Assembly (NCBI GenBank): GCA_016124795.1
Contig: WGNB01000019.1
Coordinates: forward strand, 1 to 64,000
Length of the DNA: 64,000 bases
From: Rhodopseudomonas sp.
Lineage (GTDB): Bacteria; Pseudomonadota; Alphaproteobacteria; Rhizobiales; Xanthobacteraceae
Direction: 5' to 3'
A program made the translations under genes and the position numbers. The notes beneath the pieces were generated by a model. The model made no database searches. It was given only the letters and a program-made list of their open reading frames with translations, and was not told the DNA's origin. Below, piece by piece: positions 2,240 to 31,991 of this stretch; the stretch's first letter is position 1, and every line of letters begins with the position of its first letter.

Positions 2240-2332
2240 TCGAATTTATGGAGTTCGCGGTTATAGCCACCGGCGCATGCGCGGGGGGCTGCGCATCTTC
2301 CTTATCATGTCGGGCAATCAGGAGAATTTCAG

Positions 2333-3961: not shown

Positions 3962-3994
3962 GCGCAGACATCGCGACAACCGCATTTATGCGAA

Positions 3995-4027
3995 TGAGCG
4001 CCTGCCGGAGCAGGCGCTCATTTTTTT
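3995..4027 (+). terminator. Rho-independent terminator after the chemoreceptor gene
   Basis: A perfect 11-bp stem, TGAGCGCCTGC (3995-4005) with GCAGGCGCTCA (4010-4020), has a CGGA loop and is followed directly by seven T. It lies 34 bases after the receptor stop codon, between convergent genes. Confidence 0.93.
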
Positions 4028-4047
4028 ATCCGTAACAGGCCGCGCGT

Positions 4048-6408
4048 TTACGCCGCCTTCTTCGCCTTGGCCGCCTCGATCGCCTGCCAGATCTTCGAGG
4101 CCGTCATCGGCATTTCCATCTCGCGGATGCCGAATTCGGACAGGGCGTCGAACACCGCGTTGACGACGGCGGGCAGTCCGCCCGAGGTGCCGGCTTCGCC
4201 GCAGCCCTTGGCGCCGATCGGGTTGCTCTTGGTCGGGATCGGCCGGTTGGCGACTTCGATCGACGGCGCGTCGTGCGCGTGCGGCATGGCGTAGTCCATG
4301 AACGAGCCGGTGACCAACTGGCCGCCGGCGTCATAGACCGCGCCTTCCATCAGCGCCTGGCCGAGGCCCTGCATGATGCCGCCCTGCACCTGGCCCTCGA
4401 CCAGCATCGGGTTGAGCACGGTGCCGAAGTCGTTGATCGACAGGTACTTCACGACGCGGGTGAGGCCCGTGTCGGGCTCGATCTCGCATTCGACGACATG
4501 CACGCCGTTCGGATAAGTGCCGGGGATCGCCTCGGTGACATGGGTGACGTCGAGCGTCGTCGGCATTCCTTCGGGCAGGGCGATGCCGGAGCGAACCTTC
4601 GCCGCCAGCTCCATGATGCCGATGGCGCGGTCGGTGCCGGCGATGGTGAAGCGGCCGGCGGCGAACTCGATATCGCCGGCGGCGGCCTCCAGCACATGGG
4701 CGGAGAGCTGCTTGCCGATGTCGATCACCTTGTCGGAGGCTTGCGCCACCGCGGTGCCGCTCGTCATCGCCGAGCGCGAGCCGCCGGTGCCGCCGCCGGT
4801 CACCAGCTGGTCGCTGTCGCCCTGCAACAGCTTGATCTTGTCGAAGGGAATGCCGAGCTTGTCGGCCAGCACCTGGGCGAAAGCCGAGGCGTGACCCTGA
4901 CCGTAGTCGAGCGTGCCGGTGATGATGGTGACGGTGCCGTCGTCGTTGAAACGGATGCCGCCCATCTCGGTGGTCATCGCCGCGGTGGTCTCGACGAAGC
5001 AGGCGACGCCCAGGCCGCGCAGCTTGCCCTCGCGCTTGCTAGCGCGGCGGCGGGCGGCAAAGCCCTTCACGTCGGCGCGGTCGAGCGCCTCCTTGAACAG
5101 GCCGGGGAAGTCGCCGCAGTCATAGGTGGTGCCGGCCGGCGTCTTGAACGGCATCTCCTTGGCCTTGATGAAATTGCGCTTGCGCAATTCGAAGCGGTCG
5201 ATGCCGAGCTGCTGGGCGGCGTAATCCATCGTGCGTTCGATCGACAGCGCGCCTTCCGGGCGGCCGGCGCCGCGATAGGCCGAGACCAGCGTGGTGTTGG
5301 AGAACACGCATTGCGTCGAGACCTCGAGCAACGGCGTCTTGTACATGCTGATGATGTTCTTGGTGACGTTGACGGTCGGCAAGAGCGGGCCGAAGGCGGC
5401 GCAGTAGCCGCCGAGATTGCCGTAGCCGGTCAGGCGCATCGCCTGGATCAGGCCGTCCTTGTCGAAGGCGGTCTCGACCGTCATGTCGAAGTCGCGGCCG
5501 TGGTGGTCGGACATGAAGCTGCCGGACCGGTCGTCGGTCCACTTCACCGGCCGGCCGAGCAGCTTGGCGGCGTGCAGGATGCAGACATATTCCGGATAGA
5601 CCGCGGCCTTCATGCCGAACGAGCCGCCGACATTGCCGGTCAGCACGCGCACCTTGTCGGGCGTCGTGCCGAGAATGTCGCGCAGCATGTTCTTCAGACC
5701 GAACACGCCCTGGCTGCACGAGTGCAGCGTCCACTTGTCGTCGGCGGTGGTGAATTCGCCGATCGCCGAGCGCGGCTCCATCGCGGCGACGATCAGGCGC
5801 TGGTTGACGAGCGGCATCGACACGACATGGGCGGCCTGCTTGAAAGCCTCGGCGACCTTGGCGCTGTCGCCATACTGATAGTCGAGCGCGATATTGCCGG
5901 GCACGTCATCGTAAAGCTGCGGCGCGCCGGGCTTGGCGGCCTCGCGCGCCGAGGTGACGGCGGGCAAGGGCTCGATGTCGAGCGCCACCGCCTCGGCGGC
6001 GTCGCGGGCCTGGGCGATGGTCTTGGCGACGACGCAGGCGACGGGATCGCCGACGAAGCGCACCTTGTCGGTCGGCAGCGCCGGGCGCGGGGTATATTTG
6101 ATCGGCGAGCCGTCGCGGCTCTTCAAGGGCAGGTTGCATTTCAGCCCGCCATAGCCGGCGAGATCGGCGCCGGTGAGCACCGCCAGCACGCCCGGCATCG
6201 CCTTGGCGGCTTCGGTATCGATCGAGCGGATAATGCCGTGCGGCTCGGACGAGCGCACCATGGCGGCATAGACCTGATTCGGCAGGTTGATATCGTCGGT
6301 GTAACGGCCTTCGCCGCGCACCAAAGTCGGGTCTTCCTTGCGCAGAACCGGCTGGCCAACGCCAAATTTGGTCTGCGAAAGGGCCGTTTCGGTGGTTTGA
6401 TCGTCCAT
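4048..6408 (-). CDS. Xanthine dehydrogenase-family molybdopterin-binding subunit (CoxL-like)
   Basis: A 786-residue large subunit of a molybdenum hydroxylase, which carries the molybdopterin-cytosine-dinucleotide cofactor and oxidises its substrate with water. The N-terminal hammerhead domain begins G-x-P-V-L-R-K-E-D-P-x-L-V-R-G-x-G-R-Y. The Mo-binding part shows G-G-S-F-G-M-K near 261-267, A-Y-R-G-A-G-R-P-E near 377-385, and the catalytic-glutamate motif K-G-C-G-E-A-G near 730. True carbon monoxide dehydrogenases carry A-Y-R-C-S-F-R at that loop, so this is not a CO dehydrogenase. The substrate is unknown; aldehydes or N-heterocycles are typical. No FAD subunit or 2Fe-2S subunit lies next to it, which is odd because these enzymes normally act as a three-part complex. 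Confidence 0.9.
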   Translation of the reverse strand: MDDQTTETALSQTKFGVGQPVLRKEDPTLVRGEGRYTDDINLPNQVYAAMVRSSEPHGIIRSIDTEAAKAMPGVLAVLTGADLAGYGGLKCNLPLKSRDGSPIKYTPRPALPTDKVRFVGDPVACVVAKTIAQARDAAEAVALDIEPLPAVTSAREAAKPGAPQLYDDVPGNIALDYQYGDSAKVAEAFKQAAHVVSMPLVNQRLIVAAMEPRSAIGEFTTADDKWTLHSCSQGVFGLKNMLRDILGTTPDKVRVLTGNVGGSFGMKAAVYPEYVCILHAAKLLGRPVKWTDDRSGSFMSDHHGRDFDMTVETAFDKDGLIQAMRLTGYGNLGGYCAAFGPLLPTVNVTKNIISMYKTPLLEVSTQCVFSNTTLVSAYRGAGRPEGALSIERTMDYAAQQLGIDRFELRKRNFIKAKEMPFKTPAGTTYDCGDFPGLFKEALDRADVKGFAARRRASKREGKLRGLGVACFVETTAAMTTEMGGIRFNDDGTVTIITGTLDYGQGHASAFAQVLADKLGIPFDKIKLLQGDSDQLVTGGGTGGSRSAMTSGTAVAQASDKVIDIGKQLSAHVLEAAAGDIEFAAGRFTIAGTDRAIGIMELAAKVRSGIALPEGMPTTLDVTHVTEAIPGTYPNGVHVVECEIEPDTGLTRVVKYLSINDFGTVLNPMLVEGQVQGGIMQGLGQALMEGAVYDAGGQLVTGSFMDYAMPHAHDAPSIEVANRPIPTKSNPIGAKGCGEAGTSGGLPAVVNAVFDALSEFGIREMEMPMTASKIWQAIEAAKAKKAA

Positions 6409-6596
6409 ATCGGGGATTTACCGCTGTCGTTTGAGGGGTGTGGTTCAGATAGTGCAGGCGGGGGCTCGCCACAACAATAGCTTTCGGGCGCGAGGGTTGC
6501 GTGACGCACGGGCGCTGTTACACTTTTGGCAACAAGGGAACATTGCCTTCGCCGGGGGGCCTGGGAGGCCGACGGCGCGGGCCGCGAGGTTGAATT

Positions 6597-7775
6597 ATGA
6601 CGAGCGGCGAGGCCGGGGACGACCCAGGCCTCGACCCCGCTGTCGATCGGGCGCCGGTGGAGCGGGTCCGGTGGGGTCGGCGGTCGCCTGGACGGCGCGA
6701 AACGGAGTTCGGCCTCGATCGTGGTGGCCCGACTTACGCCGCGCTCGATCTTGGCACCAATAATTGCCGTCTGCTGGTGGCGCGTCCGGCCGGCGACGGC
6801 TTTCGGGTGGTCGATGCATTTTCACGCATCGTCCGGCTGGGTGAAGGCGTGTCCGGCTCCGGCCGGCTGAGCGACGCCGCGATCGGTCGCGCCCTTGAGG
6901 CGCTGGAAATCTGCCGCAACAAGATGCGCAACCGCGGCGTCACCCGCGCCCGGCTGATCGCGACCGAGGCCTGCCGCGCCGCCGTCAACGGCCTGGAATT
7001 CCGCGATCTGGTCGCCGAGCGGCTCGGCCTGTCGCTCGAGGTCATCGACCGCGAGACCGAGGCGGAATTGGCCGCCACCAGTTGCACGCCGCTGATCGAT
7101 CCGCAGGCCGAAGGCGTTGTGTTGTTCGACATCGGCGGCGGCTCATCCGAACTGGTGCGGCTCGACCGTTCGCCGGACTGCCGGCGCGGTCCGCCGCTGC
7201 CGTCGATCCGCGGCTGGATTTCGCTGCCGCTCGGCGTTGTGACACTGGCCGAACGGCATGGCGGCCTCGACGTCAGCCGCGCCACTTTCGAGCGCATGGT
7301 CGCCGAGGTGACGGCGCTGATCGAACCTTTTGCGCAGCGATATGGCGCCGACGACTTGCACGGCGTCCATATGCTCGGTACGTCGGGGACCGTCACCACC
7401 ATTGCCGGCGTCTATCTCGATCTCAAACGCTACGACCGCAACCGCATTGACGGTTGCTGGATGGGCGTTTCCGAAGTCGACGCCGTGCTCGAACGGCTTT
7501 TGACCATGAGTTATGCCGACCGCGTTGCTTCGCCCTGCATTGGCGCCGACCGCGCCGATCTGGTGCTGGCCGGCTGCGCCATTCTCGAGGCGATCCGGCG
7601 CGCCTTCCCCTGTCCGCGTCTGCGCGTCGCCGACCGAGGCTTACGCGAAGGCATGCTGGTGCAGATGATGCGCGAGGACGGCGCCTGGGGCGATCTGCCG
7701 GCCGGCGGCAATGGCGCGTCGGACGGGCACGTCAACGGCGTCCTGAACGGCGGCAGTCAGGCGGCGATCTCTTGA
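6597..7775 (+). CDS. Ppx/GppA family exopolyphosphatase or pppGpp phosphatase
   Basis: A 392-residue protein of the ASKHA fold that hydrolyses polyphosphate or the stringent-response nucleotide pppGpp. The core starts at about residue 46 with [12 protein letters not shown] (phosphate-1 loop). The second nucleotide-binding signature F-D-I-G-G-G-S-S-E is near 178, and G-T-S-G-T-V-T-T is near 262. The first 45 residues are basic and arginine/glycine-rich and lie outside the family core. GAGG before the ATG supports this start. Its stop codon overlaps the start of rlmE, so the two are translationally coupled. Ppx-rlmE pairing is common in Rhizobiales. Choosing between Ppx and GppA is not possible from sequence. 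Confidence 0.88.
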
Positions 7776-8476
7776 CCACGCGCAGCAAGTCCAGCGGCTC
7801 GCGCGACCTCAAGGTCCGGGTCAAGACCGGCAAGGGCCGCAAGCTGTCATCCAAGCTCTGGCTGGAACGCCAGCTCAACGATCCTTATGTCGCGCGCGCC
7901 AAGCGCGAGGGCATGCGCTCGCGCGCCGCTTTCAAGCTGATGGAAATCGATGACAAGGCGCGCTTCCTCAAGAAAGGTTTGCGCGTCGTCGATCTCGGCG
8001 CGGCGCCGGGCGGCTGGGCGCAGGTCGCGGCCAAGCGGGTGCAGTCGCCGGGTCAGGGCCGCGTCGTCGGCATCGACCTGCTCGACATCGAGCCTTTGAC
8101 CGGCGTCGATTTCGTGCAACTTGATTTTCTCGATCCGAGCGCGCCCGACAAACTCAAGGCGATGCTCGGCGGGCCGGCCGATGTCGTCTTGTCGGATATG
8201 GCGGCCAATGCCACCGGCCACCGCCGCACCGATCACATCAAGATCGTTGCGCTGGTCGAGGCGGCGGCCGAATTCGCCGGCGAAGTGCTGGCGCCGGGCG
8301 GAACCTTTCTCGCCAAGGTGATTCAGGGCGGCACCGAGGGCACGCTGCTGACCTTGCTCAAGCGCGACTTCGCGTCCGTCAAGCACGTCAAGCCGCTGGC
8401 GAGCCGCGCCGACTCCGCCGAACTTTATTTGCTCGCGACCGGCTTTCGCGGCGGTGGTAACGCGGACAGGTCCTGA
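7772..8476 (+). CDS. rlmE: 23S rRNA 2'-O-ribose uridine-2552 methyltransferase
   Basis: RlmE (FtsJ/RrmJ) methylates U2552 in the A-loop of 23S rRNA late in 50S assembly. The open frame extends far upstream, but homology starts at the TTG at 7772, which overlaps the TGA of the preceding gene (TTGA). This gives 234 residues, near the usual length plus a basic N-terminal tail ([15 protein letters not shown]). The SAM-binding motif [11 protein letters not shown] is followed by [12 protein letters not shown] and F-L-A-K-V-I-Q-G, which supply the catalytic Lys and Asp of the K-D-K-E tetrad. The non-ATG start probably sets low, coupled expression. Confidence 0.93.
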
Positions 8477-8524
8477 GAACGGGACAGCTATTTCAGTTCA
8501 GTCATCGAGGTTCAGCCATTGCCG

Positions 8525-9208
8525 TCAGGCATAGGCGACCCAGCCCCTGAAGCTCAGTCCCGCGTAAAATAACGTGACGTCGGAGAATCCGGCGTCGCGA
8601 AGCAATGCCTCGTCGTCTGCGGGTGATACGATCGAAAGCCTGGTCCGCATCGCGTCGACTGCACTTTGCAGTCGGGCGGCATCGGTCGTCGGCCATTCGG
8701 GGTAGGCCACATGGCGCGCCAGCCAGTGTGATCGTTCGGGTTCGTTTTGCGCAAAGCTGATATGGGCAACGACGAAAGGCGCGCCGCCGCGCAACCGACG
8801 ATGAATTTCGCGCAACGTCGTCAGCCGCCGTTCGCGTGGAATGAAGTGGAAGGTCAGCAGGCAGGTGGCCGCATCGAATGGGCCGTTCGGCGCGACTTCA
8901 ATATCGCCTTTGTGTAACCTTACCCGGTTGCGATAGGCGGCGGTGATCGTTTCGGCAAGTCGCAGCATATCGCTCGAAGGGTCGACGCCGTCGAACTGCC
9001 AGCCCCTTTGCGCTTCGGCCAGCGCCTTTAGTTCCAAGCCGCCGCCGGCGCCGAGAACAAGCACACGGCCGTCCGGCGGCGTGCGTTCGGCAAGCAGCAT
9101 TTCGGTCATGCGATGGAGGCTCGAAAAGCCGGGAACCTGGCGTGGCGGGCCCGCGAGATAGGCGTTGACAGCGTCGCCGGCAAAGGCGTTTTGAATCTCA
9201 GGAGGCAT
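8525..9208 (-). CDS. SAM-dependent class I methyltransferase
   Basis: About 227 residues from the ATG at 9208 (M-P-P-E-I-Q-N-A-F). Longer versions of this frame run through the neighbouring regulator gene out of phase and are not real. The glycine-rich SAM motif V-L-V-L-G-A-G-G-G-L-E is near residue 58, with acidic D-G-V-D-P-S-S-D about 20 residues later and F-D-A-A-T-C-L-L-T-F-H-F in motif IV/V position, as in UbiE/COQ5-like enzymes. The substrate is unknown. It overlaps the last 11 bases of the upstream Rrf2 regulator gene, so it is very probably controlled by it. The C-terminal D-A-G-F-S-D-V-T-L-F-Y-A-G-L-S-F-R-G-W resembles tellurite/biotin-type small methyltransferases. Confidence 0.85.
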   Translation of the reverse strand: MPPEIQNAFAGDAVNAYLAGPPRQVPGFSSLHRMTEMLLAERTPPDGRVLVLGAGGGLELKALAEAQRGWQFDGVDPSSDMLRLAETITAAYRNRVRLHKGDIEVAPNGPFDAATCLLTFHFIPRERRLTTLREIHRRLRGGAPFVVAHISFAQNEPERSHWLARHVAYPEWPTTDAARLQSAVDAMRTRLSIVSPADDEALLRDAGFSDVTLFYAGLSFRGWVAYA

Positions 9209-9662
9209 GGGCGTTATCCAGCTTGAGCGCCGTCTTGCGCCGCAGATTGCGCGAGCGGATATCGCTGTCGAGCTCGGCGAGGGTGACATCGGCAAAGCGA
9301 GCCACGAGCAATTGCTCGGCTTCGCGCGCCGTCTCGTCAAGTCTGGCATTGACCGCTTGTTCGATAAGGCATTCCGGGTTTGCTGAACGGTTGCCGAAAG
9401 CGAGCAGAGCCGGACTGCCCAGCGCCAAATAGATATCGCGCAACGTGATTTGCGCGAGATCGCGGGCCAGCGTCCAGCCACCGCCATGACCTTTGAGCGA
9501 GTGCACGTAACCGTGCTGGCGTAACCCGGCCATCATCCGGCGCACGACCACCGGGTTTGTCCGGAGCGACTTGGCCAGCACTTCCGAAGTGACAGGGCCG
9601 TCCTCATGCGCCATGTGCAAGAGAACGTGCAGCACGCTCGATAGTCGATTATCGCCACTCAT
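9198..9662 (-). CDS. Rrf2 family transcriptional regulator
   Basis: A 154-residue winged-helix repressor. The helix-turn-helix spans about residues 20-50 (V-T-S-E-V-L-A-K-S-L-R-T-N-P-V-V-V-R-R), followed by the wing G-H-G-G-G-W-T-L-A-R. It has a single cysteine (P-E-C-L-I-E), whereas iron-sulfur Rrf2 proteins such as IscR and NsrR use three, so it is unlikely to hold a cluster in that way. Its gene appears to start directly at the transcription start (see the promoter entry) and to be autoregulated. It is translationally coupled to the downstream methyltransferase by an 11-base overlap. The signal it senses is unknown. Confidence 0.9.
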   Translation of the reverse strand: MSGDNRLSSVLHVLLHMAHEDGPVTSEVLAKSLRTNPVVVRRMMAGLRQHGYVHSLKGHGGGWTLARDLAQITLRDIYLALGSPALLAFGNRSANPECLIEQAVNARLDETAREAEQLLVARFADVTLAELDSDIRSRNLRRKTALKLDNAHAS

Positions 9663-9669
9663 GTAACTT

Positions 9670-9698
9670 TATCTATTACGTAAGCATCCAAGCGTCAA
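9670..9698 (-). promoter_or_regulatory. Promoter for a leaderless rrf2-type transcript with palindromic operator
   Basis: On the minus strand TTGACG (9698-9693) lies 17 bases before TAGATA (9675-9670). The ATG of the regulator begins only seven bases after the -10 box, so transcription should start at or within a base or two of the A of ATG and give a leaderless mRNA. No ribosome binding site is present. The 8-base palindrome TTACGTAA (9676-9683) abuts the -10 box inside the spacer and is a good candidate for autorepression. Confidence 0.6.
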
Positions 9699-9789
9699 GT
9701 CGCTCTGGCTATGGTGCTGGCTCATAGCGGTGGTCTCCGGATTGGCGCAGCCGTGCGCATCCGGCCTCAGCGGTGGCTGGGCTTTAAGG

Positions 9790-12177
9790 TCAGCGCCAGA
9801 TGTCGGAGAAGGTCGCGCCACGGCGGCCTTCGGTGCGCTGGCGGCGTTCCAGATATTCGAAATAAGCGCGCCGTTGTTCGGAAGGGCTCATCGCCTCGAA
9901 GCGGGCTTGCTCCTGCCGGGCGGCGCGCTGCTGCGCCTCGCGGCGCGACCGTTCGTGGCGTTCGCTGTCACGCTTGCCGCCGGTGCGTGTCGCCTCGCGC
10001 GGTTGCGGGTCCGGTGGCGGCGACGGCTTGGCCGTCGGCAGCGGGATCGCGATCGTCGGTCGTAACGGCGTCTCGATGGCCGGCGTTGTCGCGATCGATG
10101 CGATGGCGGTTTCGGCGGCGGGCGGGCTGGACACGGTTGCGGCGATCGCCGGCTTTGGTTCGGCGTCGGCTGCCGGTTGCGCCTTCGCCGCGATCGGCGC
10201 GTCGGGCTTGATGGCGGTCTTCGCACCCGCCGTCTTCGTGCTGGCCGTCTTGGCGCTGGCCGTTACCTCGGGCTTGGCGGAGTCGGACTTTGCCTCCGCC
10301 TTTGCGTCCGGTTTGGCGCCGGACTTTGCCGTCGTTGCGGTGGCCGGAATGTTGACAACGGCGACCGCGGTTTGCCGCTCGATGTTCAGTCTGGCCTGTT
10401 CGGCGGCTTGCCGGGCTTGCTGCAAAGCCTTTTGTCGCGAGGCTTCCTTCTCGGCCTTTTGCAAGGCTTCCTGTTGCGCGGCCAGTTGGGCCTTCTGCTG
10501 CGCTTCGCGTTCGGCGGCGCGCTGCGCTTCCTGTTGCGCCTTCTGCCGCGCCTGTTCGGCTTGGGCCTCGGCCTCTGCCTTCGCTGCGGCTTCGGCGGCG
10601 GCCTTGGCCGCCATTTCCGCAGCGATCTGCGCGGTGGCCTTGTCCAGCGCCTGACGGGCCGGCGTCAAGTCGCGATCATGATTGAGTGCCGAGCGATAAT
10701 CGGCGATGGCGCGATCGCGTTCGTCGCGCGCGGTGAAAATCCGGCCGCGCCGATAATAAGCCAGCGCGTTGTCGGGATCGGATGCAATCGCGGCATTGAG
10801 ATCGGTCACGGCCTTGTCGTTGTCGCCGTCGGCTTCGTAAAGCGCGGCGCGGGCGAGGTAGGGCGCGGCCCTGGCGTCATTCAATGCGATGGCGCGTTCG
10901 AAATCGGCGAGCGCGCCGGCCTTGTCGCGATTGGCCCGATGGACCTGACCGCGCGCGGTCAGCAGCAAGGCCAGGGTCTTGGGTGTCTCGTCGTTGCCGG
11001 TCTTGTTGCCGGCTTCGTCGTTCGCGCTATCGAAGGCCGCGATCGCCTTGTCGAGATCGGGCAACGCCTGGGCGGTCTTGTTCTGCCGCGCATAGGCCAT
11101 GCCGCGCAGCGCGATGGCGTCGATATTATCGTCGTCGATCTTGAGCATGGCGAGCGCGTCATGCAGCGCGCCGTCATTGTCGCCGTCGGCCAGCCGGAGG
11201 TCGCCGCGCACTTTCAGCCCGTTGACGGTCCAGGACAGTTTGAGCGCACGGCCGATATCGGCATAAGCCCGCTTGCGCTCGCCTTTGTCGCGATAGGCTT
11301 GGGCGCGCAGCCGGTAGAACAGCGACGGGTTGTCGTTGAGCGCGATGGCGCGGTCGAGCGTGGCGATGGTCTTGTCGAAATCGCCTTTGCCGCGCCAGAT
11401 CGCGGCCTGCGCGCGCAGCGCGGCGCTGTCGCGGGGGTCGAGCCTGACGGCGGCTTCGGCATCGCGCAGCGCGCCGTCGAGGTCGCCGCCGGCCTGGCGC
11501 GCCTTGGCCCGCAACAGATAATTGGCCGTGCTCGGGTCGAGCCGGACCGCGCTGTCGAAATCGGTATTGGCGTTCGCATAGTCGCGCCGTTGCAAATAAA
11601 GCTGGCCGCGCCCGCTATAGGCCGCGGCGTGTTGCGGCCGCAGTTCGATGGCTTTCTTGTAGTCGGCGAGAGCGCCGTCGAAAAAGCCGAGGTCGCGGCG
11701 CACGGTGGCGCGGTTGACGTAAGGCGACGCTTGTTGCGGATCGAGGCTGATGGTCTTGTCGTAGTCGGCCAGCGCCTGACCGTAGCTGCCACGGGCATAC
11801 CAGGCGTTGCCACGATTCTGATAGGCCGGCGCGAAGTCCGGCGCGAGTTCGATGGCGCGGTTGAGATCGCCGATGGCGTGCGGGATGTCGCCGCGATCGA
11901 GATAGGCCAGCCCCCGCATCGCATAGGCGACGCCGAGCGCCGTGCCGTGCAGCCGGCTGGAATTCATCAGGTTGCTGCAAGCGGCGGCGCGTTCGCTGGC
12001 CATCGTCGCGGTCTGGGTCGCGCAGAGTTCCGCGTCGTCGCGGCGCTGGGCTTGCGCCGCGAGCGGCCAGACGAGCGTGCAGGCGTATAGAACGCCAACC
12101 GTTGCGCCGGCCGATGCCAGGCGTTGGGCAAGCGTCGATGGCCGGGCCGGGGGCAAGACAGGTTTCAAAAGCCGCAT
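9790..12177 (-). CDS. Large tetratricopeptide-repeat protein with signal segment and coiled-coil tail
   Basis: About 795 residues if the ATG at 12177 (M-R-L-L-K-P) is used; an upstream ATG adds 14 residues. A hydrophobic segment near residues 25-44, ending A-A-Q-A-Q, suggests export or a membrane anchor. Residues about 70-500 hold roughly a dozen TPR units of the A-Y-x-x-R-G-x-A-Y/A-I-x-D-L-x-x-A-I-x-L-x-P type, a scaffold for protein binding. Residues about 500-590 are an alanine/glutamine/glutamate/lysine-rich coiled coil. A low-complexity Ala-Lys-Pro region follows, and the last 80 residues are very basic (E-R-H-E-R-S-R-R-E-A-Q-Q-R). The function is unknown; TPR proteins of this size often organise periplasmic or envelope complexes. 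Confidence 0.85.
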   Translation of the reverse strand: MRLLKPVLPPARPSTLAQRLASAGATVGVLYACTLVWPLAAQAQRRDDAELCATQTATMASERAAACSNLMNSSRLHGTALGVAYAMRGLAYLDRGDIPHAIGDLNRAIELAPDFAPAYQNRGNAWYARGSYGQALADYDKTISLDPQQASPYVNRATVRRDLGFFDGALADYKKAIELRPQHAAAYSGRGQLYLQRRDYANANTDFDSAVRLDPSTANYLLRAKARQAGGDLDGALRDAEAAVRLDPRDSAALRAQAAIWRGKGDFDKTIATLDRAIALNDNPSLFYRLRAQAYRDKGERKRAYADIGRALKLSWTVNGLKVRGDLRLADGDNDGALHDALAMLKIDDDNIDAIALRGMAYARQNKTAQALPDLDKAIAAFDSANDEAGNKTGNDETPKTLALLLTARGQVHRANRDKAGALADFERAIALNDARAAPYLARAALYEADGDNDKAVTDLNAAIASDPDNALAYYRRGRIFTARDERDRAIADYRSALNHDRDLTPARQALDKATAQIAAEMAAKAAAEAAAKAEAEAQAEQARQKAQQEAQRAAEREAQQKAQLAAQQEALQKAEKEASRQKALQQARQAAEQARLNIERQTAVAVVNIPATATTAKSGAKPDAKAEAKSDSAKPEVTASAKTASTKTAGAKTAIKPDAPIAAKAQPAADAEPKPAIAATVSSPPAAETAIASIATTPAIETPLRPTIAIPLPTAKPSPPPDPQPREATRTGGKRDSERHERSRREAQQRAARQEQARFEAMSPSEQRRAYFEYLERRQRTEGRRGATFSDIWR

Positions 12178-21010: not shown

Positions 21011-21127
21011 ACCGGCCACCGCCGCGGCGGTGCCGGTCGCGCGGCCGGCTTTGAAACCTCGCCCGAATATCGGTGAATGCGCGGCGTCGCCTGTTGCGGC
21101 GCGGCGCGCAGTCGCTTATTTCAAGGC

Positions 21128-22729
21128 ATGACCGCATCCCCAAACGCTACCGCCACGGCCTTCGATCCGAGCCATCTGCCGGATCATGACAAGATTCTGA
21201 TTGTCGATTTCGGTTCGCAAGTCACCCAACTGATCGCGCGCCGCGTGCGCGAGGAAAAGGTCTACTCGGAGATCGTGCCGTTCCAGAAAGCCGAAGAGGC
21301 TTTCCGGGCGATGAAGCCGAAAGCGGTGATCCTGTCCGGCGGACCGGCGTCGGTGCTCGACGCCCATGCGCCGCTGGCGCCGAAAGCGATCTTCGATGCC
21401 GGCGTGCCGGTGCTCGGCATCTGCTACGGCGAACAGGCGATGGCGCATCAGCTCGGCGGCAAGGTCGAGGCCGGCCATCATCGCGAGTTCGGCCGCGCCG
21501 AGGTCGAGGTCATCGCCGACAGTCCGATCTTCGAGGGCGTCTGGGAGAAGGGCGGCAAATATCCGGTCTGGATGAGCCACGGCGACCGCGTCACCGAATT
21601 GCCGCCGGGCTTTCGCGTGCTAGGCCAGGCGCCGGGTTCGCCGATCTCGATCATCGGCGACGACGCCCGCAAGTTCTACGCCACGCAATTTCATCTTGAA
21701 GTGATGCATACGCCGCAGGGCGCGCAGCTCCTGCGCAACTTCGTGCGCAACATCGCCGGGCTGACCGGCGACTGGACGATGCGCGCCTTCAAGGAAGAAG
21801 CGATCGAGAAGATCCGCAAGCAGGTTGGCAAGGCCAAGGTGATCTGCGGCTTGTCCGGCGGCGTCGATAGCGCGGTGGCGGCGGTGCTGATCCACGAAGC
21901 GATCGGCGATCAACTGACCTGCGTGCTGGTCGACCATGGTCTGATGCGGCTGGCCGAAGCCGAGCGGGTCGTGACCATGTTCCGCGACAGCTACAATATC
22001 CCGCTGGTCCACGTCGATGCGTCCGACACCTTCATCGGCGCGCTGGAAGGCGTCGACGATCCCGAACAGAAGCGCAAGATCATCGGCAAACTGTTCATCG
22101 ACGTGTTCGACGCCGAAGCCAAGAAGATTGGCGGCGCGGAGTTCCTGGCGCAGGGCACGCTCTATCCCGACGTGATCGAGAGCGTGTCGTTCACCGGCGG
22201 GCCGTCGGTGACGATCAAGTCGCACCACAATGTCGGCGGGCTGCCCGACTTCATGAAGATGAAGCTGGTCGAGCCGCTGCGCGAATTGTTCAAGGACGAG
22301 GTGCGCGCGCTCGGCCGCGAACTCGGCCTGCCGGAAAGCTTCGTCGGCCGGCATCCGTTTCCGGGGCCGGGGCTGGCGATCCGCTGCCCGGGCGGCATCA
22401 CCCGCGACAAGCTCAAGATCCTGCAACTGGCCGACGAGATCTATATCGAGGAAATCCGCCGCTGCGGTCTTTACGACGACATCTGGCAGGCCTTCGCGGT
22501 GCTGCTGCCGGTCAAGACCGTCGGCGTCATGGGCGACGGGCGCACGTATGAATACGTCGTCGGCTTGCGCGCGGTGACCTCGGTCGACGGCATGACCGCC
22601 GACTTCTATCCCTTCGACATGAAGTTTCTCGGCATGGTCGCCACCCGCATCATCAACGAGGTCAAGGGCGTCAACCGCGTCGTTTATGACGTGACGTCGA
22701 AGCCGCCGGGGACGATTGAGTGGGAGTGA
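21128..22729 (+). CDS. guaA: GMP synthase (glutamine-hydrolysing)
   Basis: GuaA aminates XMP to GMP using glutamine and ATP. The ATG at 21128 gives 533 residues. The class I glutamine amidotransferase domain (about 22-210) has the nucleophile in V-L-G-I-C-Y-G-E-Q (Cys99) and the His189/Glu191 pair in F-H-L-E-V. The ATP pyrophosphatase P-loop S-G-G-V-D-S lies at 243-248, and the C-terminal dimerisation domain ends [11 protein letters not shown]. The last 87 bases are repeated at 23625-23711, which marks this gene's 3' end as an integration site for an element now mostly lost. The gene itself is intact. Confidence 0.98.
22643..22729 (+). repeat. guaA 3' end, left copy of an att-like direct repeat
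   Basis: Last 28 codons plus stop of guaA. It aligns without gaps to 23625-23711, with 77 of 87 bases identical by my reading. The ten differences are eight synonymous third-codon changes and two bases of the stop codon (TGA against TAG). Confidence 0.85.
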
Positions 22730-22732
22730 GAA

Positions 22733-23380
22733 TTACGACTTCTCGCAGTGGCATGCAGGTTCGGTGAAATAACTTAAAATGAATCCTGTAACCGCGAGAA
22801 CTAGGCCAACTGTTGCTATAGTCCCTTGTCGGGGCCAATCGAGGGCTCGCAACAGTTTATGAAGCAAATTCAAAATTATAATCATGACCAAAATCGAAAT
22901 CGACAGAGATACGAATCCAAAGATCGTAGTGATCGCCATAAATAAAGCAGTGCCAATTGCGGAAGTCGCATTGAAACCAATATGAATTTGTAGCGGGTCT
23001 GTTAGGTCGTGCGCGATGCTGGCGATGTAGAAAAGTAATAAGGCAACTGTGTCGAATGGGTCGGTTGCAACAAGTCCGGCCGCTTCACCAACGTACGCTA
23101 GTCCGTACAGAATTATGAAGCTTAAAGCAAATGCGATGGGCGAAGCTGCAACACTCGCCACTGCAGTTGTTGCCTGGAACGCTGATTTAATTTCAGCCGG
23201 CAAGAAAAATAATGCAATTCCTCGAATGGGTTTGAAAAACCCGAACTTCGATATTGCGTAGCCAAGAATCAACCGTGCTTTATCAACGGCATCTTCCATA
23301 TATCTCGATAAACCGAAATAATCTGTGAATGCAAGAATCAGCCCTGCAAATTCGATGATATTTGCAAATTTGCTCAGCAT
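22733..23380 (-). CDS. AT-rich orphan multi-pass membrane protein
   Basis: A 215-residue protein with about four or five hydrophobic helices (around 8-22, 40-60, 75-100, 108-130, 145-175 and 185-208) and a C-terminus with a C-x-C pair (P-A-C-H-C-E-K-S). Codon use and base composition differ sharply from the neighbours, with many A- and T-ending codons, which points to horizontal acquisition. No family is recognised. It ends three bases after the guaA stop on the opposite strand. A 13-base palindrome, ACGCAT-T-ATGCGT (23389-23401), sits nine bases before its ATG and may be its operator. It could be a membrane effector, an immunity protein or simply island cargo. Confidence 0.65.
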   Translation of the reverse strand: MLSKFANIIEFAGLILAFTDYFGLSRYMEDAVDKARLILGYAISKFGFFKPIRGIALFFLPAEIKSAFQATTAVASVAASPIAFALSFIILYGLAYVGEAAGLVATDPFDTVALLLFYIASIAHDLTDPLQIHIGFNATSAIGTALFMAITTIFGFVSLSISILVMIIILNLLHKLLRALDWPRQGTIATVGLVLAVTGFILSYFTEPACHCEKS

Positions 23381-23474
23381 GGCATGTTACGCATTATGCG
23401 TTGGCAGAGTATCCGTTGAATACTTTTCTGCGGGGAGGAGTGAGACTCTCCGTTTCAAATGAAAGTAACAAACT

Positions 23475-23594
23475 TTACCCCACCTTCGCCACCTTGTCGC
23501 GTGTCTTCGTGTCGAAATCTTTCGCGTCGTGCCGCTCGTGCAGCTGAATCGCCGGCTCGCCATTGATGCGGTTGACCATGCGGTCGCGCTCCAC
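23475..23594 (-). pseudogene. Truncated C-terminus of a YghU-like glutathione transferase
   Basis: Read on the minus strand, 39 codons ending in TAA encode M-V-N-R-I-N-G-E-P-A-I-Q-L-H-E-R-H-D-A-K and onward to D-K-V-A-K-V-G. By my alignment 28 of 39 residues match the C-terminus of the intact YghU encoded at 31113-31991. There is no start codon context, and homology ends abruptly at the 5' side, 30 bases from the second guaA-end copy. This is the tail of a lost paralogue, presumably cut by insertion or deletion. Another reading frame across the same bases is open but has no resemblance to a protein. Confidence 0.8.
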
Positions 23595-23624
23595 TGTCGA
23601 AAATGAAAACACACATTTGCCACG

Positions 23625-23711
23625 ACGCGTATCATCAATGAGGTGAAGGGCGTCAACCGCGTGGTCTATGACGTGACGTCAAAGCCGCCGGGGACGATCG
23701 AGTGGGAGTAG
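23625..23711 (+). repeat. Displaced guaA 3' end, right copy of the att-like repeat
   Basis: It encodes the same final 28 residues as guaA (from T-R-I-I-N-E-V-K to G-T-I-E-W-E) and then TAG. Differences from the live copy are all synonymous, so this sequence evolved as part of a working guaA before being separated. It is probably the original chromosomal 3' end, displaced when an element supplied a new one. The upstream codon differs (an extra Thr), showing that homology starts exactly here. Confidence 0.85.
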
Positions 23712-23827
23712 AGGCGGAGAAAAGCCCGGGTAGGTACAGACGCGGACAGGATAGCGAAGGCTAATCCATTGCTCGCCTTCGATAGTCCCTGAAAGGTCCC
23801 TGGACCGATATCGGCAGCAGAGCGGCG

Positions 23828-24781
23828 TTAGCGCGGGACCGTCGACAGTAATGCGCGAGTCTCGGCAACGACGCGGTCCTGGAATTTCGGATCGCGCACG
23901 AGCGCGGAGCCTTGCATCGGCCGGCCACGCTCGTCGAAGTAGACGCCGGTTTGACCGGATGGATCGATCAGAATTTTAGAAATCACGCGCGCCGCCCGGC
24001 TCGGGGTGCTCAAGATCTTCACGAAGGGTATGAGCAGCGGTACGAGGAGCGGAATGATGTATGCCTGCAGAAAGCGCACGGAGGCGCCGACATCGCTGCC
24101 GCCGAGACCGGTGGTCGGATTGAACCCCGGCTCAACCGCATTGAACGACAGCCGTGGAGTCTCGCGGGCGAACGCCATCGCCGCGGCAAGGATACACTGC
24201 TTGGATGTGGCATAGGCGTCGAAGCCCGGTTTCGCGGAGCCGCCAGGTTTCCACTCGCCGCGTGCGCTGGCCTCCGCCGAGATATAGCGGCCACCGCGAA
24301 ACCCCGCAGACACGGCAGGCTTTCGCTCGGGATCTTCTACCGCGGAGGCGACAAAGAGGACGTGAGCGCCATCGGCAAGATGCGGCGCGAGCGCCTCGGT
24401 CAGTGCGAAGGGGCCGAGGTGATTTGTCGCGAACGTCATGTCCCAGCCCAGAGCGTTCTTGGCCGGGCGCATCTGCATGATGCCAGCGTTGTTGAGCAAC
24501 CCGGCAATCGGGAGATGGAGCGCGACAATCTCCGCGGCCGCCCGCCGCACGCTCGCAAGATCCGACAGGTCGCACACGACCGACACGGCGTGCTGGCCTT
24601 TTTGCTCGACCGTCTTTTGCACCTCGCGGAGCTTTTCGCGGTCGCGGCCGACCAGCACGACCGCCCCGTGCTTGGCCAATTCGAAGGCCGTCCGGCGGCC
24701 GATCCCGGAGGTCGGTCCGGTGATGACGTAGGCCTTGTTATGGGCCGGGTTTCGCAGAGACGAGTGCGTCGCCATCGACAT
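23828..24781 (-). CDS. Short-chain dehydrogenase/reductase
   Basis: A 317-residue Rossmann-fold NAD(P)-dependent oxidoreductase. The cofactor motif T-G-P-T-S-G-I-G lies near 21-28, with V-G-R-D-R-E following the second strand (the arginine favours NADP). Further motifs are L-N-N-A-G-I-M, and the active-site Y-A-T-S-K with an upstream serine in V-A-S-A-V-E. The length and insert (G-E-W-K-P-G-G) resemble retinol-dehydrogenase-like SDRs rather than the classical 250-residue type. It is divergent from an AraC-type regulator 170 bases away, a frequent pairing in which the regulator controls the SDR. The substrate is unknown. Confidence 0.9.
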   Translation of the reverse strand: MSMATHSSLRNPAHNKAYVITGPTSGIGRRTAFELAKHGAVVLVGRDREKLREVQKTVEQKGQHAVSVVCDLSDLASVRRAAAEIVALHLPIAGLLNNAGIMQMRPAKNALGWDMTFATNHLGPFALTEALAPHLADGAHVLFVASAVEDPERKPAVSAGFRGGRYISAEASARGEWKPGGSAKPGFDAYATSKQCILAAAMAFARETPRLSFNAVEPGFNPTTGLGGSDVGASVRFLQAYIIPLLVPLLIPFVKILSTPSRAARVISKILIDPSGQTGVYFDERGRPMQGSALVRDPKFQDRVVAETRALLSTVPR

Positions 24782-24815
24782 GATGCCCTCTCAATCCGGA
24801 CGCTACCCGCGACGT

Positions 24816-24868
24816 CATTCCGCTGTGCGCTGATCGACTATGGTGGCCGAAGGCCGGAAAGCGGAATG
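24816..24868. promoter_or_regulatory. Inverted repeat in the SDR/AraC divergent promoter region
   Basis: CATTCCGCT (24816-24824) and AGCGGAATG (24860-24868) are a perfect 9-bp inverted repeat 35 bases apart, lying between the divergent SDR and AraC genes. It may be a two-site operator allowing looping, or a decayed palindromic repeat of the kind at 188-466, which shares CATTCCG/CGGAATG. Confidence 0.4.
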
Positions 24869-24951
24869 GCGGAATTCGCCCGTTTCTTGCCTATTCCTGC
24901 TTCACGGGACTATCCTCGCCGGTGATTTCAACCTGAATGGAAAGGGCCGGC

Positions 24952-25872
24952 ATGCCCGATCAATTGGCGGAAGCGCTCCTGCGCTATACGGATCGCCGGC
25001 CCGGCGAGAGCCTGTTCATGACGGCCATCGACGGGTTGGCCATCATGCGAGCGGATCATCCGAAGCCGCCGAGCCACATGATCTTCAAGCCGGCCATGTG
25101 TATCGTGGCGCAAGGCGCAAAATGGGCGACGTTCGGCGACAACCGACTTGAGTACACCGCAGGGCAGGCGCTCGTGATCGGCGTCGAGACGCCGTCGATC
25201 GGCCGGGTGGTTGAAGCGAGCCCTGGGGAGCCGTGTCTTGTCCTCGCGTTCGAATTGGATCTTGCGATCATGCGGAGCGTCGCGGAGGGACTGGACACGC
25301 CGCCAATAGCCAGCGGGGAGCCCGGCCGCGGCGTCTTCGTGACGGATTTTCAAGGCCCGCTGGCCGACTGCGCGCTGCGCCTGGTCCGGCTGCTCGATAC
25401 GCCCAAGGCGATTCCAACGCTCCACCCGATCATTATGCGGGAGATTTGCTATTGGCTTCTGACCGGCCCTCATGGCGGAGATGTCGCCAGACTGACTCTG
25501 GCAAACGGGCCGTCGTGGCGCGTGATCAGCGCGATGCACAGCTTGCGAAATCGCTTTAAAGAAGCTGTTCGGGTCGCCGAACTGGCCGCGGTCGCCCAGA
25601 TGAGCCCCTCCGCCTTCCATCGTCAGTTCAAGGCGCTGACGTCGCTGACGCCGCTGCAATATCAAAAGCAGCTCCGCCTGCTGGAGGCGCGCCGCCTTAT
25701 GATCTCGCGTGCGTTCAACGTCGAGGCCGCTGCCTTCGAGGTCGGCTACGAAAGTGCCTCGCAGTTCAGTCGAGAATACACCCGCATGTTTGGCGCGCCG
25801 CCCAAGCGGGACATCAAGCACTTGCAGACGCTCTTTCACGCCGACGAGGCGATGACGCGAGACGCTGCTTAG
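24952..25872 (+). CDS. AraC family transcriptional regulator
   Basis: 306 residues from the ATG at 24952, which has AAGGG before it; an ATG five codons upstream is possible. The N-terminal AraC_N domain (about 15-170) shows I-F-K-P-A-M-C-I-V-A-Q-G-A-K and Y-x-A-G-Q-A-L-V-I-G-V-E-T-P, typical of regulators that sit beside SDR or alkene/aldehyde genes. The C-terminal domain has the two helix-turn-helix motifs: V-A-E-L-A-A-V-A-Q-M-S-P-S-A-F-H-R-Q-F, and E-V-G-Y-E-S-A-S-Q-F-S-R-E-Y. It is divergent from the SDR gene and probably activates it. The inducer is unknown. Confidence 0.92.
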   Translation: MPDQLAEALLRYTDRRPGESLFMTAIDGLAIMRADHPKPPSHMIFKPAMCIVAQGAKWATFGDNRLEYTAGQALVIGVETPSIGRVVEASPGEPCLVLAFELDLAIMRSVAEGLDTPPIASGEPGRGVFVTDFQGPLADCALRLVRLLDTPKAIPTLHPIIMREICYWLLTGPHGGDVARLTLANGPSWRVISAMHSLRNRFKEAVRVAELAAVAQMSPSAFHRQFKALTSLTPLQYQKQLRLLEARRLMISRAFNVEAAAFEVGYESASQFSREYTRMFGAPPKRDIKHLQTLFHADEAMTRDAA

Positions 25873-26172
25873 TGGGGCGCCTTGGGTGATGGCGGCATTT
25901 TTGCAGGCGAGTACGTGATGTCTTGTCGCTGCGAATTCTGTAAATCGACCGATCGGTATCGATCGTCGCGGGAACCCAGCAAATCGTGGCGCGTCGGAAC
26001 GCACGTTTGAAATCAAGAGCCTGAATTTCGGACGGACCGCCGCGACGGTACTTGACGCAGCGCCGAAAAGCTTTAGTCGTTAGATCAGCGCGTTGCCATG
26101 GCCAAAACAATCGAGTGGTAGTGGAGGGGAGCGGATCGTTGGGGTTCGTTCTAAAAAAGGTGGATAAAAACC
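25873..26172. other. Intergenic spacer, possible island boundary
   Basis: No gene is evident in these 300 bases. They contain a short match to the guaA terminus at 26107-26124 and, near 25948-25965, a GATCG-rich stretch with GACCGATCGG. Base composition becomes AT-richer toward 26150, leading into the HNH gene. Confidence 0.5.
26107..26124 (+). repeat. Possible third, short guaA-end-like sequence
   Basis: The 18 bases starting ACAATCGAGTGG match the last bases of the displaced guaA end (ACGATCGAGTGG and onward) at 15 of 18 positions, in the same orientation. It is too short to exclude chance, but it lies just before the composition shift at the HNH gene, where a second attachment scar would be expected. 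Confidence 0.3.
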
Positions 26173-27072
26173 ATGGCGTTCGGGGTCTTTATCCATCGTT
26201 CGGATTCGATTTACGATGATAGTCCTGCTGAACGCTATCAGTTTCCCAGTCAATACCTAGGCCGCGTTAGAGCCTGCATCGGTGATTGGATTATTTATTA
26301 CGAGCCGACGAAAGTCGTCGGCTCGCGCGGTTATTTTGCTGTGGCCAAGATTCAGCAAGTGATTTCGGATCCGAAAGCTCCTGACATGCATTTGGCATTG
26401 GTCGAGCCCGGGAGTTATCTCGATTTCCCCAATCCTGTCCCATTTAATGATTCTGCTGGGCCGGTTGAACGCGGCGTTTTGAATGAAAGTGGGCGGCTGT
26501 CGGGCCGTGCTCAGTCTGCCGTCCGGCCGATTTCTCCAGACGATTTCAGGCGTATTGTCGAGCTTGGTCTTGACGAAGATACGCAGTTGCTGCCGCGTGT
26601 CGGCAATTTACTGACGCCATCCGGATTTCAGGAAGACCATGCGCCCTTTCAATACGATGAGCAGCGGAATCGGACGAATTTCACCGTATCGAGGATTGTG
26701 CGGGATCGTGTTTTCCGGCGTGTCGTGTTGCGTGCCTACGAGCAACGTTGTGCGGTCACTGGTCTAAGCTTTATTAACGGTGGCGGTCGTGCGGAGGTCG
26801 CTGCGGCTCACATTCGTCCGGTCGAGGCGAGCGGTCCGGATATTGTGAATAACGGAATTGCGTTATCCGGCACAGCGCATTGGATGTTTGATCGTGGACT
26901 TATAAGCCTGTCGGATGATCTTGAAATACTTATCTCTCGGCATGCGAATGACCAAGATGGCATACGAGCGTTTGTTAACAAGTCCGGGCGTGCAATTCCG
27001 CCGGCGCGGGCCTCAGATCGGCCGCACCCACATTTCTTGAATTGGCATCGTGAGAATTGCTTTAAACAATAA
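26173..27072 (+). CDS. HNH endonuclease with an N-terminal PUA/EVE-like domain, probable restriction enzyme
   Basis: A 299-residue protein. The C-terminal HNH_2-type nuclease (about 190-245) shows R-C-A-V-T-G, the catalytic A-A-A-H-I (His213), N-N-G-I-A-L and A-H-W-M-F-D-R-G (His236), a beta-beta-alpha metal finger. The N-terminal half (about 1-90) has P-S-Q-Y-L, then G-D-W-I-I-Y-Y-E-P and Y-F-A-V-A-K-I-Q-Q-V, resembling PUA/EVE/SRA-type domains that read modified bases. That layout fits modification-dependent (type IV) restriction; this is inference from architecture. AT-richer codon use than the surroundings suggests transfer. AGGTGG precedes the ATG. A perfect hairpin interrupts the coding sequence at 26301-26325 without breaking the frame. 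No methyltransferase is adjacent. Confidence 0.82.
   Translation: MAFGVFIHRSDSIYDDSPAERYQFPSQYLGRVRACIGDWIIYYEPTKVVGSRGYFAVAKIQQVISDPKAPDMHLALVEPGSYLDFPNPVPFNDSAGPVERGVLNESGRLSGRAQSAVRPISPDDFRRIVELGLDEDTQLLPRVGNLLTPSGFQEDHAPFQYDEQRNRTNFTVSRIVRDRVFRRVVLRAYEQRCAVTGLSFINGGGRAEVAAAHIRPVEASGPDIVNNGIALSGTAHWMFDRGLISLSDDLEILISRHANDQDGIRAFVNKSGRAIPPARASDRPHPHFLNWHRENCFKQ
26301..26325. repeat. Perfect GC-rich hairpin inside the HNH gene
   Basis: CGAGCCGACGA, a three-base AAG loop and TCGTCGGCTCG form a perfect 11-bp stem within coding sequence (about codons 43-51). The flanks are AT-rich (TTATTTATTA before it), so it stands out. It may be an in-frame palindromic insertion or an mRNA structure that tunes translation. 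Confidence 0.6.
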
Positions 27073-31112: not shown

Positions 31113-31991
31113 TCAAGCGGGCGTCGCGACTTTGTCCTGCGTCTTGGTGTCGAAGTCGGACGCGTCGTGACGCTCGTGCAACTGGCTCGCCGGATCGCCC
31201 GAGACGCGGTTGACCATGCGGCCGCGCTTGACCGCCGGCCGCGCCAGCAACTGGTCGGTCCAGCGTTGCACGTTCTTGTAGTCCTGCACGCTTAGGAAGG
31301 TGGCGGAGTCGCCATAGAGCCAGCCTTTCACCAAGCCGCCGTACCAGGGCAGGATGGCGATGTCGGCAATCGTGTAGTCCTTGCCGGCGATGAACTCATG
31401 GTCGGCCAGTTGCCGGTCGAGCACGTCGAGCTGGCGCTTGACCTCCATCGAGAAGCGGTCGATCGGATATTCCTGCTTGGTCGGTGCGTAGGCGTAGAAA
31501 TGGCCGAAGCCGCCGCCGAGATAGGGCGCAGAGCCCATCTGCCAGAACAGCCAGGAGAAGCATTCGGCGCGCGCCGCCGGATCGGTCGGCAACAGGGCGC
31601 CGAATTTCTCGGCGAGGTAAGTCAGGATCGCGCCGGATTCGAATACCCGGATCGGCTTTGCGCCGCTGCGGTCCATCAGCGCCGGAATCTTCGAATTGGG
31701 ATTGACCGACACGAAGCCCGAACCGAACTGGTCGCCGTCGCCGATCTTGATCAGCCAGGCGTCATATTCCGCGCCCTTGTGGCCGAGCGCGAGCAATTCC
31801 TCGAGCATGATGGTGACTTTTTGCCCGTTGGGCGTCGCCAGAGAATAAAGTTGCAGCGGATGCTTGCCGACTGGCAATTCCTTCTCATGGGTCGGCCCGG
31901 CGATCGGCCGGTTGATGCTGGCGAACTTGCCGCCGTTTTCCTTGTTCCAGGTCCATACCTTGGGCGGCGTGTAATTGGGCGTGTCGCTCAT
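31113..31991 (-). CDS. yghU: Glutathione-dependent disulfide-bond oxidoreductase
   Basis: A 292-residue cytosolic glutathione transferase-like enzyme of the YghU/Nu class, which reduces disulfides and peroxides using two glutathiones. The family N-terminal extension (Y-x-P-P-K-V-W-T-W) precedes the thioredoxin domain with A-T-P-N-G-Q-K-V-T-I-M-L-E-E. The cis-proline region N-P-N-S-K-I-P-A-L and F-E-S-G-A-I-L-T-Y-L-A follow. The helical domain contains D-Y-T-I-A-D-I-A-I-L-P-W, and the tail L-H-E-R-H-D-A-S-D-F-D wraps the partner subunit. The length matches the family. A truncated relative of its C-terminus lies at 23475-23594. Confidence 0.95.
   Translation of the reverse strand: MSDTPNYTPPKVWTWNKENGGKFASINRPIAGPTHEKELPVGKHPLQLYSLATPNGQKVTIMLEELLALGHKGAEYDAWLIKIGDGDQFGSGFVSVNPNSKIPALMDRSGAKPIRVFESGAILTYLAEKFGALLPTDPAARAECFSWLFWQMGSAPYLGGGFGHFYAYAPTKQEYPIDRFSMEVKRQLDVLDRQLADHEFIAGKDYTIADIAILPWYGGLVKGWLYGDSATFLSVQDYKNVQRWTDQLLARPAVKRGRMVNRVSGDPASQLHERHDASDFDTKTQDKVATPA

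What the first reader, a model, noticed from the sequence alone, without database searches (positions are those of the whole stretch)
22643..23711. Duplicated guaA 3' end marks a decayed integrative element
The last 87 bases of guaA are repeated at 23625-23711. Both copies encode the same 28 residues and stop; the eight codon differences are all synonymous and the stop differs (TGA/TAG). A second copy kept under protein-level selection is what site-specific integration at the guaA 3' end produces when the element supplies its own gene end. The 895 bases between are AT-rich and hold an orphan membrane gene and a truncated gene, but no integrase.
Basis: partly seen in the sequence, partly recalled or inferred. 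Interest (0 to 1): 0.75.

Follow-up and report, generated by a model that had tools for sequence, protein, structure and literature searches.

The report
Layered insertions behind the guaA gene
Two rounds of foreign DNA have been stacked behind the housekeeping gene guaA, the newer one pushing aside the gene's old last 87 bases; this is a known insertion hotspot, but the newer piece looks pasted in by recombination with a relative's chromosome rather than by the usual integrase.

Summary
The repeat is real: 22643-22729 and 23625-23711 match at 77 of 87 bases, with eight synonymous codon changes and TGA/TAG. A local duplication is unlikely: a free-drifting duplicate would give 8/8 synonymous changes with P about 0.001, and a weak 84-column tree separates the copies. 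The 'truncated gene' is the 3' end of a GST gene whose intact copy is at 31113-31991. guaA> variable cargo <GST occurs in 9 of 25 same-genus loci. The inserted unit is [guaA end - orphan ORF - GST end] joined to the displaced guaA end; G608 (same genus) and G607 show like architecture with other genes. I favour import of a congener's hotspot segment by one-sided homologous plus illegitimate recombination. The hotspot itself is site-specific: a guaA integrase follows guaA in 77 of the best 80 loci, but its crossover lies in the last ~9 bases, not at -87. The piece next door, 23712-26127 (SDR, AraC), looks like an integrase-less cassette ending in a decayed attR. Its counterpart follows guaA in G517, which stacks further units with the same end.

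The parts
21077..22729 (+). guaA (GMP synthase) open frame, functional copy
   Evidence: aligned to relatives
22643..22729 (+). guaA 3' end, copy 1 (in the functional gene); att core GAGTGGGA at 22718-22725
   Evidence: core sequence from PMC9376610 (passages)
22733..23380 (-). orphan 215-aa ORF (membrane-type by eye), the cargo of the newer unit
   Evidence: no Pfam, PADLOC or PHROGs family; no relative in the 396 other genomes of the order sample, PLSDB, GTDB contigs or IMG/VR
23475..23600 (-). 3' stub of a GST gene (up to 41 codons and stop), truncated at its 5' side
   Evidence: 81% nt identity of 23486-23590 to 31124-31228; translation
23601..23624 (.). joint between the GST stub and the displaced guaA end
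23625..23711 (+). displaced guaA 3' end (copy 2); core GAGTGGGA at 23700-23707
23712..26127 (+). older integrase-less cassette (SDR 23828-24781 minus, AraC 24937-25872 plus) ending in a decayed attR
   Evidence: 80% and 84% nt identity to two blocks of G517, L106:1527-2721 and 3475-4787, directly behind guaA; G517 has one more SDR gene between them
25888..26126 (+). conserved ~240-base right end (attR-like arm) of guaA-site units
   Evidence: profile hits in 8 loci, this one being among the four seeds; arm motif shared with the integrase left arms but decayed here
26107..26127 (+). third guaA-tail copy, decayed att core GAGTGGTA at 26113-26120
26173..27072 (+). HNH endonuclease gene that directly follows guaA in 3 relatives
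   Evidence: L035, L037, L051; Pfam HNH_2
31113..31991 (-). intact GST gene, right flank of the guaA hotspot in this genus

Best explanation
22730-23711 is the scar of a horizontal import. A stretch of a congener's guaA hotspot (guaA end, cargo ORF, and the last ~105-126 bases of the convergent GST gene) entered the cell. It recombined with the recipient through guaA homology on the left, while its ragged right end inside GST was joined illegitimately to the recipient's guaA 87 bases before its stop. The result is one complete guaA, the imported cargo, a GST stub, and the displaced old guaA end. Shown: the anatomy, the identity of both stubs, their divergence, guaA-GST synteny in part of the genus, and like architecture in G608 and G607. 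Inferred: the one-sided homologous plus illegitimate (HFIR-like) route, the donor, and which copy is native. [quoted passage not shown] an integrase acting in trans is inferred).
For: Eight of eight differences synonymous: P 0.0005-0.0013 if the displaced copy drifts freely and the main copy accepts synonymous changes only. The tree puts the copies on different sides of a supported split, 99/91. Copy 1 is 85/87 identical to G007 although that guaA differs greatly further upstream; only G000 and G007 of 391 genomes share a 32-base haplotype exactly. The GST stub sits as expected for a donor with guaA>cargo<GST, an order found in 9 of 25 same-genus loci at gaps of 1.2-11.3 kb. A direct repeat of a sequence lying further downstream ends 2-34 bases left of the displaced guaA end in 5 of 22 intervals examined (window, G608, G607 clear; G763 matches on both strands, G675 only 28 bases). 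Left borders of displaced ends vary from -58 to -323 over 22 copies in 21 loci, as illegitimate joints would. A PF00589 hit lies inside the interval in 0 of 9 genomes compared by coordinates. Precedent: displaced 3' regions by an HFIR-like process in Vibrio T6SS clusters, proposed by its authors (PMC5361080, passages).
Against: The nearest rows to copy 1 are congeners while the nearest two to copy 2 are other genera, the reverse of what the simplest version (main end foreign, displaced end native) predicts; the 87 bases carry too little signal to settle it. No donor with the cargo ORF was found, and the GST stub has no close relative (best 82%). L097, L098 and L114, and also L108 and L109, share left contexts within each group, so some joints spread as fixed units. 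Seventeen of 22 intervals showed no repeat at the joint in the ~1.8-21 kb of downstream DNA held; for three of the 22 (L090, L091, L113) I only estimated the displaced border, and L098 and L114 were not in that test.
Confidence: 0.5

Rival explanations
1. The interval is a decayed integrative element whose own recombinase crossed over at guaA -87 and supplied an 87-base replacement end.
For: guaA is a true hotspot: integrase 0-700 bp downstream of guaA in 77 of the best 80 loci and in 5 of 30 relatives' loci, all in 4 genomes of this genus; the shared haplotype with G007 is consistent with an end starting near -87; G608 has nearly the same border, -84.
Against: In 76 integrase-bearing guaA ends the element-like bases begin only at the last codon (GAA in 73 of 76 against GAG in 22 of 24 other loci; TT after the stop in 76 of 76), with no drop of third-position variation further upstream, though that set is taxonomically broader than its comparison. 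The left flank of the displaced copy is a chromosomal gene stub, in G608 a different one. No integrase match or arm motif in the interval.
Confidence: 0.15
2. A small circle carrying the joint (GST stub fused to the last 87 bases of guaA, plus cargo) integrated whole into guaA, by a single homologous crossover or by the guaA integrase acting in trans on the GAGTGGGA core inside it.
For: The unit lies between two direct GAGTGGGA cores 982 bases apart; nearest rows make copy 1 look native and copy 2 foreign; the GIsul2 integrase is reported to excise and integrate a second unit bounded by att sites (PMC9376610, passages).
Against: Still needs an earlier illegitimate event to make the joint; no arm motif in the unit; no circle seen.
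Confidence: 0.22
3. An old tandem duplication of guaA-cargo-GST in this lineage, later diversified by gene exchange.
For: The order guaA, GST stub, guaA stub, GST is exactly what a tandem duplication with ends in the two genes gives.
Against: All-synonymous divergence and separate tree positions need a second step of allele replacement; the DNA between guaA and GST differs between the two units.
Confidence: 0.1
4. Assembly artefact.
For: Draft genome in 76 contigs.
Against: The copies differ at 10 bases, the contig is 182 kb, and G608 and G607 (one contig) show like architecture.
Confidence: 0.03

Closest known systems
guaA-site integrative elements (GIsul2, PMC9376610, passages; ATE-1 and the Brucella suis IncP island, listed in a table of PMC5704250, passages)
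   Same: Same attachment gene; GIsul2 core GAGTGGGA; tyrosine integrase next to guaA in relatives
   Different: No integrase in the window; the interval in question does not end in a recognisable att arm
CIMEs, cis-mobilizable elements formed by decay and accretion (PMC5704250, passages)
   Same: The neighbour 23712-26127 has no integrase, lies at the guaA site and ends in an attR-like arm and core; in G517 such units are stacked
   Different: attL arm not seen; mobility not tested; a conserved ~240-base right end on several integrase-less units in a row
HFIR-like displacement arrays (Vibrio T6SS effector-immunity arrays, PMC5361080, passages)
   Same: One homologous anchor, illegitimate far end, displaced old sequence kept downstream
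   Different: Anchor is a housekeeping gene at an integrase hotspot; cargo is an orphan ORF
Tyrosine integrases with Arm-DNA-bind_3, Phage_int_M and Phage_integrase domains
   Same: Two guaA-adjacent integrases of relatives (L038, L040) have these domains
   Different: No such gene next to guaA in the window

Membership tests
guaA-site integrative element (interval 22730-23624) | Integrase gene or remnant | tested here: not met
   five guaA integrases give no significant match in the window (best E 0.16)
guaA-site integrative element (interval 22730-23624) | Flanking att repeats ending at the integrase crossover | tested here: inconclusive
   Two GAGTGGGA cores flank it, but the repeat extends to -87, beyond the crossover zone
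guaA-site integrative element (interval 22730-23624) | Arm-type sites (TGACGG) | tested here: not met
   none on either strand in 22730-23624
CIME (23712-26127) | No integrase or transfer genes | tested here: met
   SDR and AraC recognised, no integrase match; transfer genes not searched for by family beyond these two ORFs
CIME (23712-26127) | attR with arm and core | tested here: inconclusive
   Right-end profile and core shared with relatives, but in the window no exact TGACGG remains and the core reads GAGTGGTA
CIME (23712-26127) | attL | tested here: inconclusive
   guaA core present at copy 2, no TGACGG in 23712-23830
CIME (23712-26127) | Mobilised by a resident element | not testable with these tools
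   needs an excision assay
HFIR product | One end homologous, other end illegitimate | tested here: met
   Anatomy only: guaA homology left; GST stub joined to guaA -87 right
HFIR product | Linear incoming DNA, uptake route | not testable with these tools
   no donor or experiment

The most novel reading that the evidence does not exclude
Behind guaA in this family sits an integron-like system: arrays of small integrase-less cassettes, each closed by a conserved ~240-base recombination end carrying the guaA integrase's arm sites and the core ATCGAGTGGGAGT, added one after another at guaA by an integrase encoded elsewhere, and further traded between species as chromosome segments that leave displaced guaA ends.
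Probability: 0.22. Interest if true: 0.65.

Novelty: new member of a known kind. Interest (0 to 1): 0.42.

Why it matters
guaA is already known as an integration site; what this adds is a way to tell two layers of gene acquisition apart at one locus: short att repeats with conserved arm ends, and long displaced gene ends with stubs of the right-hand neighbour. In 30 of the 63 genomes that had two matches in a 391-genome family sample, a second guaA-end match lies on the same contig and strand within 20 kb (my reading of the list; four of the 30, G635, G229, G651 and G014, rest on matches with E above 1e-6). The locus is thus a usable natural record of how integrase-less cargo is exchanged between species.

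Tried and rejected
Donor search for the cargo ORF: nothing in the 396 other genomes of the order sample, PLSDB, GTDB contigs, IMG/VR; no family. Its structure prediction was never ready (polls up), so no fold is claimed. Nearest donor by the GST stub: best 82%, no close row in 253 genomes. A strict scan for far-end repeats of guaA in 30 relatives' loci gave only 14-base matches; it was too strict, for it missed the window's own third tail and the right ends later found in L050 and L052. The 84-column tree is weak: 26 of 41 inner branches open, bootstrap not settled. Selection on the GST stub: 7.4 synonymous and 9.4 nonsynonymous codons against orthologues, orthologue pairs 7.4 and 7.5, so no clear decay either way. 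Sequence left of the joint also matches other genomes' guaA regions in several loci; I did not count these, since shared cargo would do the same. Two notebook entries held errors: 78/87 (it is 77, corrected) and 'TGATT invariant 76/76' (recount: TGA 67, TAA 9, TT after the stop 76). In some searches only two candidates per genome were scored, so second copies may be undercounted; one search listed only its best 150 matches.

Full report
Observation. The repeat is as described: 22643-22729 and 23625-23711 share 77 of 87 bases, code for the same 28 residues, and differ at eight third positions and the stop. The 895 bases between have 46.4% GC and hold a 215-aa orphan ORF (membrane-type by eye) and a truncated gene. 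Five integrases from relatives' guaA loci give no significant match in the window.

What the truncated gene is. 23475-23600 on the minus strand is the 3' end (up to 41 codons and stop) of a glutathione S-transferase gene; its intact relative is at 31113-31991 in the same window (81% over 105 bases; GST domains). In 9 of the 25 same-genus guaA loci compared, a >70% GST match faces guaA on the opposite strand at gaps of 1.2 to 11.3 kb; in the other 16 no such GST match was seen in the DNA held, which is often short. In two complete genomes of another genus the best GST match lies far from guaA (G635, G229; coordinates). So guaA end, cargo and GST end in the window are consistent with a piece of such a locus from a congener.

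Not a local duplication. If the displaced copy drifted freely and the main copy took only synonymous changes, eight of eight changes being synonymous has P 0.0005-0.0013 depending on transition bias. The tree of 84 columns separates main and displaced copies by a supported split (99/91), but most inner branches are open. Copy 1's closest match is G007 (85/87), whose guaA is far less similar further upstream; the exact 32-base haplotype occurs in 2 of 391 genomes, the window's and G007.

The like architecture elsewhere. In G608 (same genus) guaA is followed by a 352-aa ORF, the first ~115 bases of an ArsC/Spx-like gene (name recalled, no family call answered for it), then 84 bases of guaA end with 4 synonymous and 0 nonsynonymous differences; an intact copy of that gene lies further downstream. 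In G607 a 210-base stretch repeated downstream ends 13 bases before the displaced guaA end. Of 22 intervals tested, 5 show such a direct repeat within 34 bases of the joint; two of these are weak (G763 matches on both strands; G675, 28 bases), and 17 show none. Displaced ends in 20 relatives' loci plus the window (22 copies) begin at -58 to -323 by local alignment; four more loci have shorter ones, -29 to -64. Of 63 genomes with two matches in the 391-genome sample, 30 have the second on the same contig and strand within 20 kb (my reading of the list).

The hotspot is site-specific all the same. An integrase starts ~245-320 bp after guaA in 5 of 30 relatives' loci, in four genomes of the genus; two of them were scanned and have Arm-DNA-bind_3, Phage_int_M and Phage_integrase domains. 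In GTDB contigs the search kept the best 80 of at least 489 relatives of this integrase: 77 of 80 lie 0-700 bp after a guaA end; in the other 3 the DNA begins 107-271 bp before the integrase. Across 76 such guaA ends, GAGTGGGA is present in 75, the last codon is GAA in 73 (GAG in 22 of 24 guaA loci without this integrase), the stop is TGA in 67 and TAA in 9, and TT follows in 76. Third-position variation upstream is not reduced, although the integrase set is taxonomically broader than its comparison. The crossover therefore seems to lie in the last 9 or so bases, agreeing with the 8-base core GAGTGGGA proposed for GIsul2 (PMC9376610, passages). An 87-base replaced end does not follow from this enzyme.

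The neighbour looks like the real element. From 23625 to 26139 the window matches G517 (another genus, one-contig genome) in two blocks, 80% and 84% identical, directly behind guaA; they hold the SDR and AraC genes, with one more SDR gene between them in G517. In both genomes the stretch ends in a conserved ~240-base sequence and ACAATCGAGTGG. In G517 two more such ends follow (L106: cores at 8458 and 10187); the ORFs between looked integrase-free by eye, and the guaA integrases gave no match in that locus. A profile of this end, built from the window and three G517 copies, finds six more full hits, 10 in 8 loci in all, plus one partial; 9 of the 10 end in ATCGAGTGG(G/T)AGT. In these 8 loci only L112 shows an integrase fragment, next to guaA (L133 itself was not scanned for integrase). 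The ends carry the motif TGACGG (17 copies in 9 of 10, 1.2 expected from shuffles), the motif that fills the integrase's left arm (241 copies in 77 of 77, 8.3 expected). The window's is the one end without an exact TGACGG, and its core reads GAGTGGTA. Shortly after the third guaA tail comes the HNH gene which in three relatives (G012, G035, G025) comes directly after guaA. So the likely order of events was: guaA-HNH; then the SDR-AraC cassette by site-specific insertion; then the newer unit.

Mechanism. For the newer unit the best reading is one-sided homologous recombination in guaA plus an illegitimate joint in GST, as proposed for displaced arrays in Vibrio (PMC5361080, passages); homology-facilitated illegitimate recombination is also reported during conjugation in E. 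coli, at low efficiency by its title (PMC3240628, title and start of abstract in the listing). Against it: nearest-row data lean towards copy 1 being native, which fits insertion of a circle better. I put 0.5 on the first, 0.22 on the second. Stacked decayed elements are described as CIME accretion (PMC5704250, passages).

Organism. Two contigs of genus-mates match GTDB records named Pseudolabrys sp. by length (108026 and 24673 bases), so the genus is probably Pseudolabrys. Searches for prior reports: 'Pseudolabrys' with 'guaA', 0 papers; guaA with Bradyrhizobium, genomic island and integrase, 1 paper, on Mesorhizobium (listing only); guaA with tandem, integrative and accretion, 8 papers, by title mostly streptococcal or general (listing). 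The library holds only open-licence papers.

Noticed in passing
L106 (G517:C1:6209500-6229499), 1596-10212: Tandem units after guaA without an integrase seen (SDR/SDR/AraC; GNAT/EamA-like/SDR/thioredoxin-like/TetR-like; LysR-like and others; names read by eye except SDR and AraC), each closed by the same ~240-base end and ACAATCGAGTGGGAGT.
   Followed up: partly
L062 (G028:C39) and L055 (G028:C106): One genome with two guaA-like ends on different contigs (the second 76% identical to the window's guaA protein), each followed by its own guaA integrase.
   Followed up: no
L097, L098, L114 (G448, G477, G458): Three genomes of different genera share the same left context at a displaced guaA end (local-alignment borders -113 to -136); part of it has a match soon after guaA in G054 (L060).
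   Followed up: partly
window 26173-27072: HNH endonuclease (PADLOC HNH model, E 8e-20) that directly follows guaA in three relatives; possibly a defence gene.
   Followed up: partly
L054 (G014:C234:3000-9500), second guaA-like match at C234:7825-7855: A short, weak second guaA-end-like match (31 bases, E 5e-4) 1.8 kb downstream of guaA.
   Followed up: no
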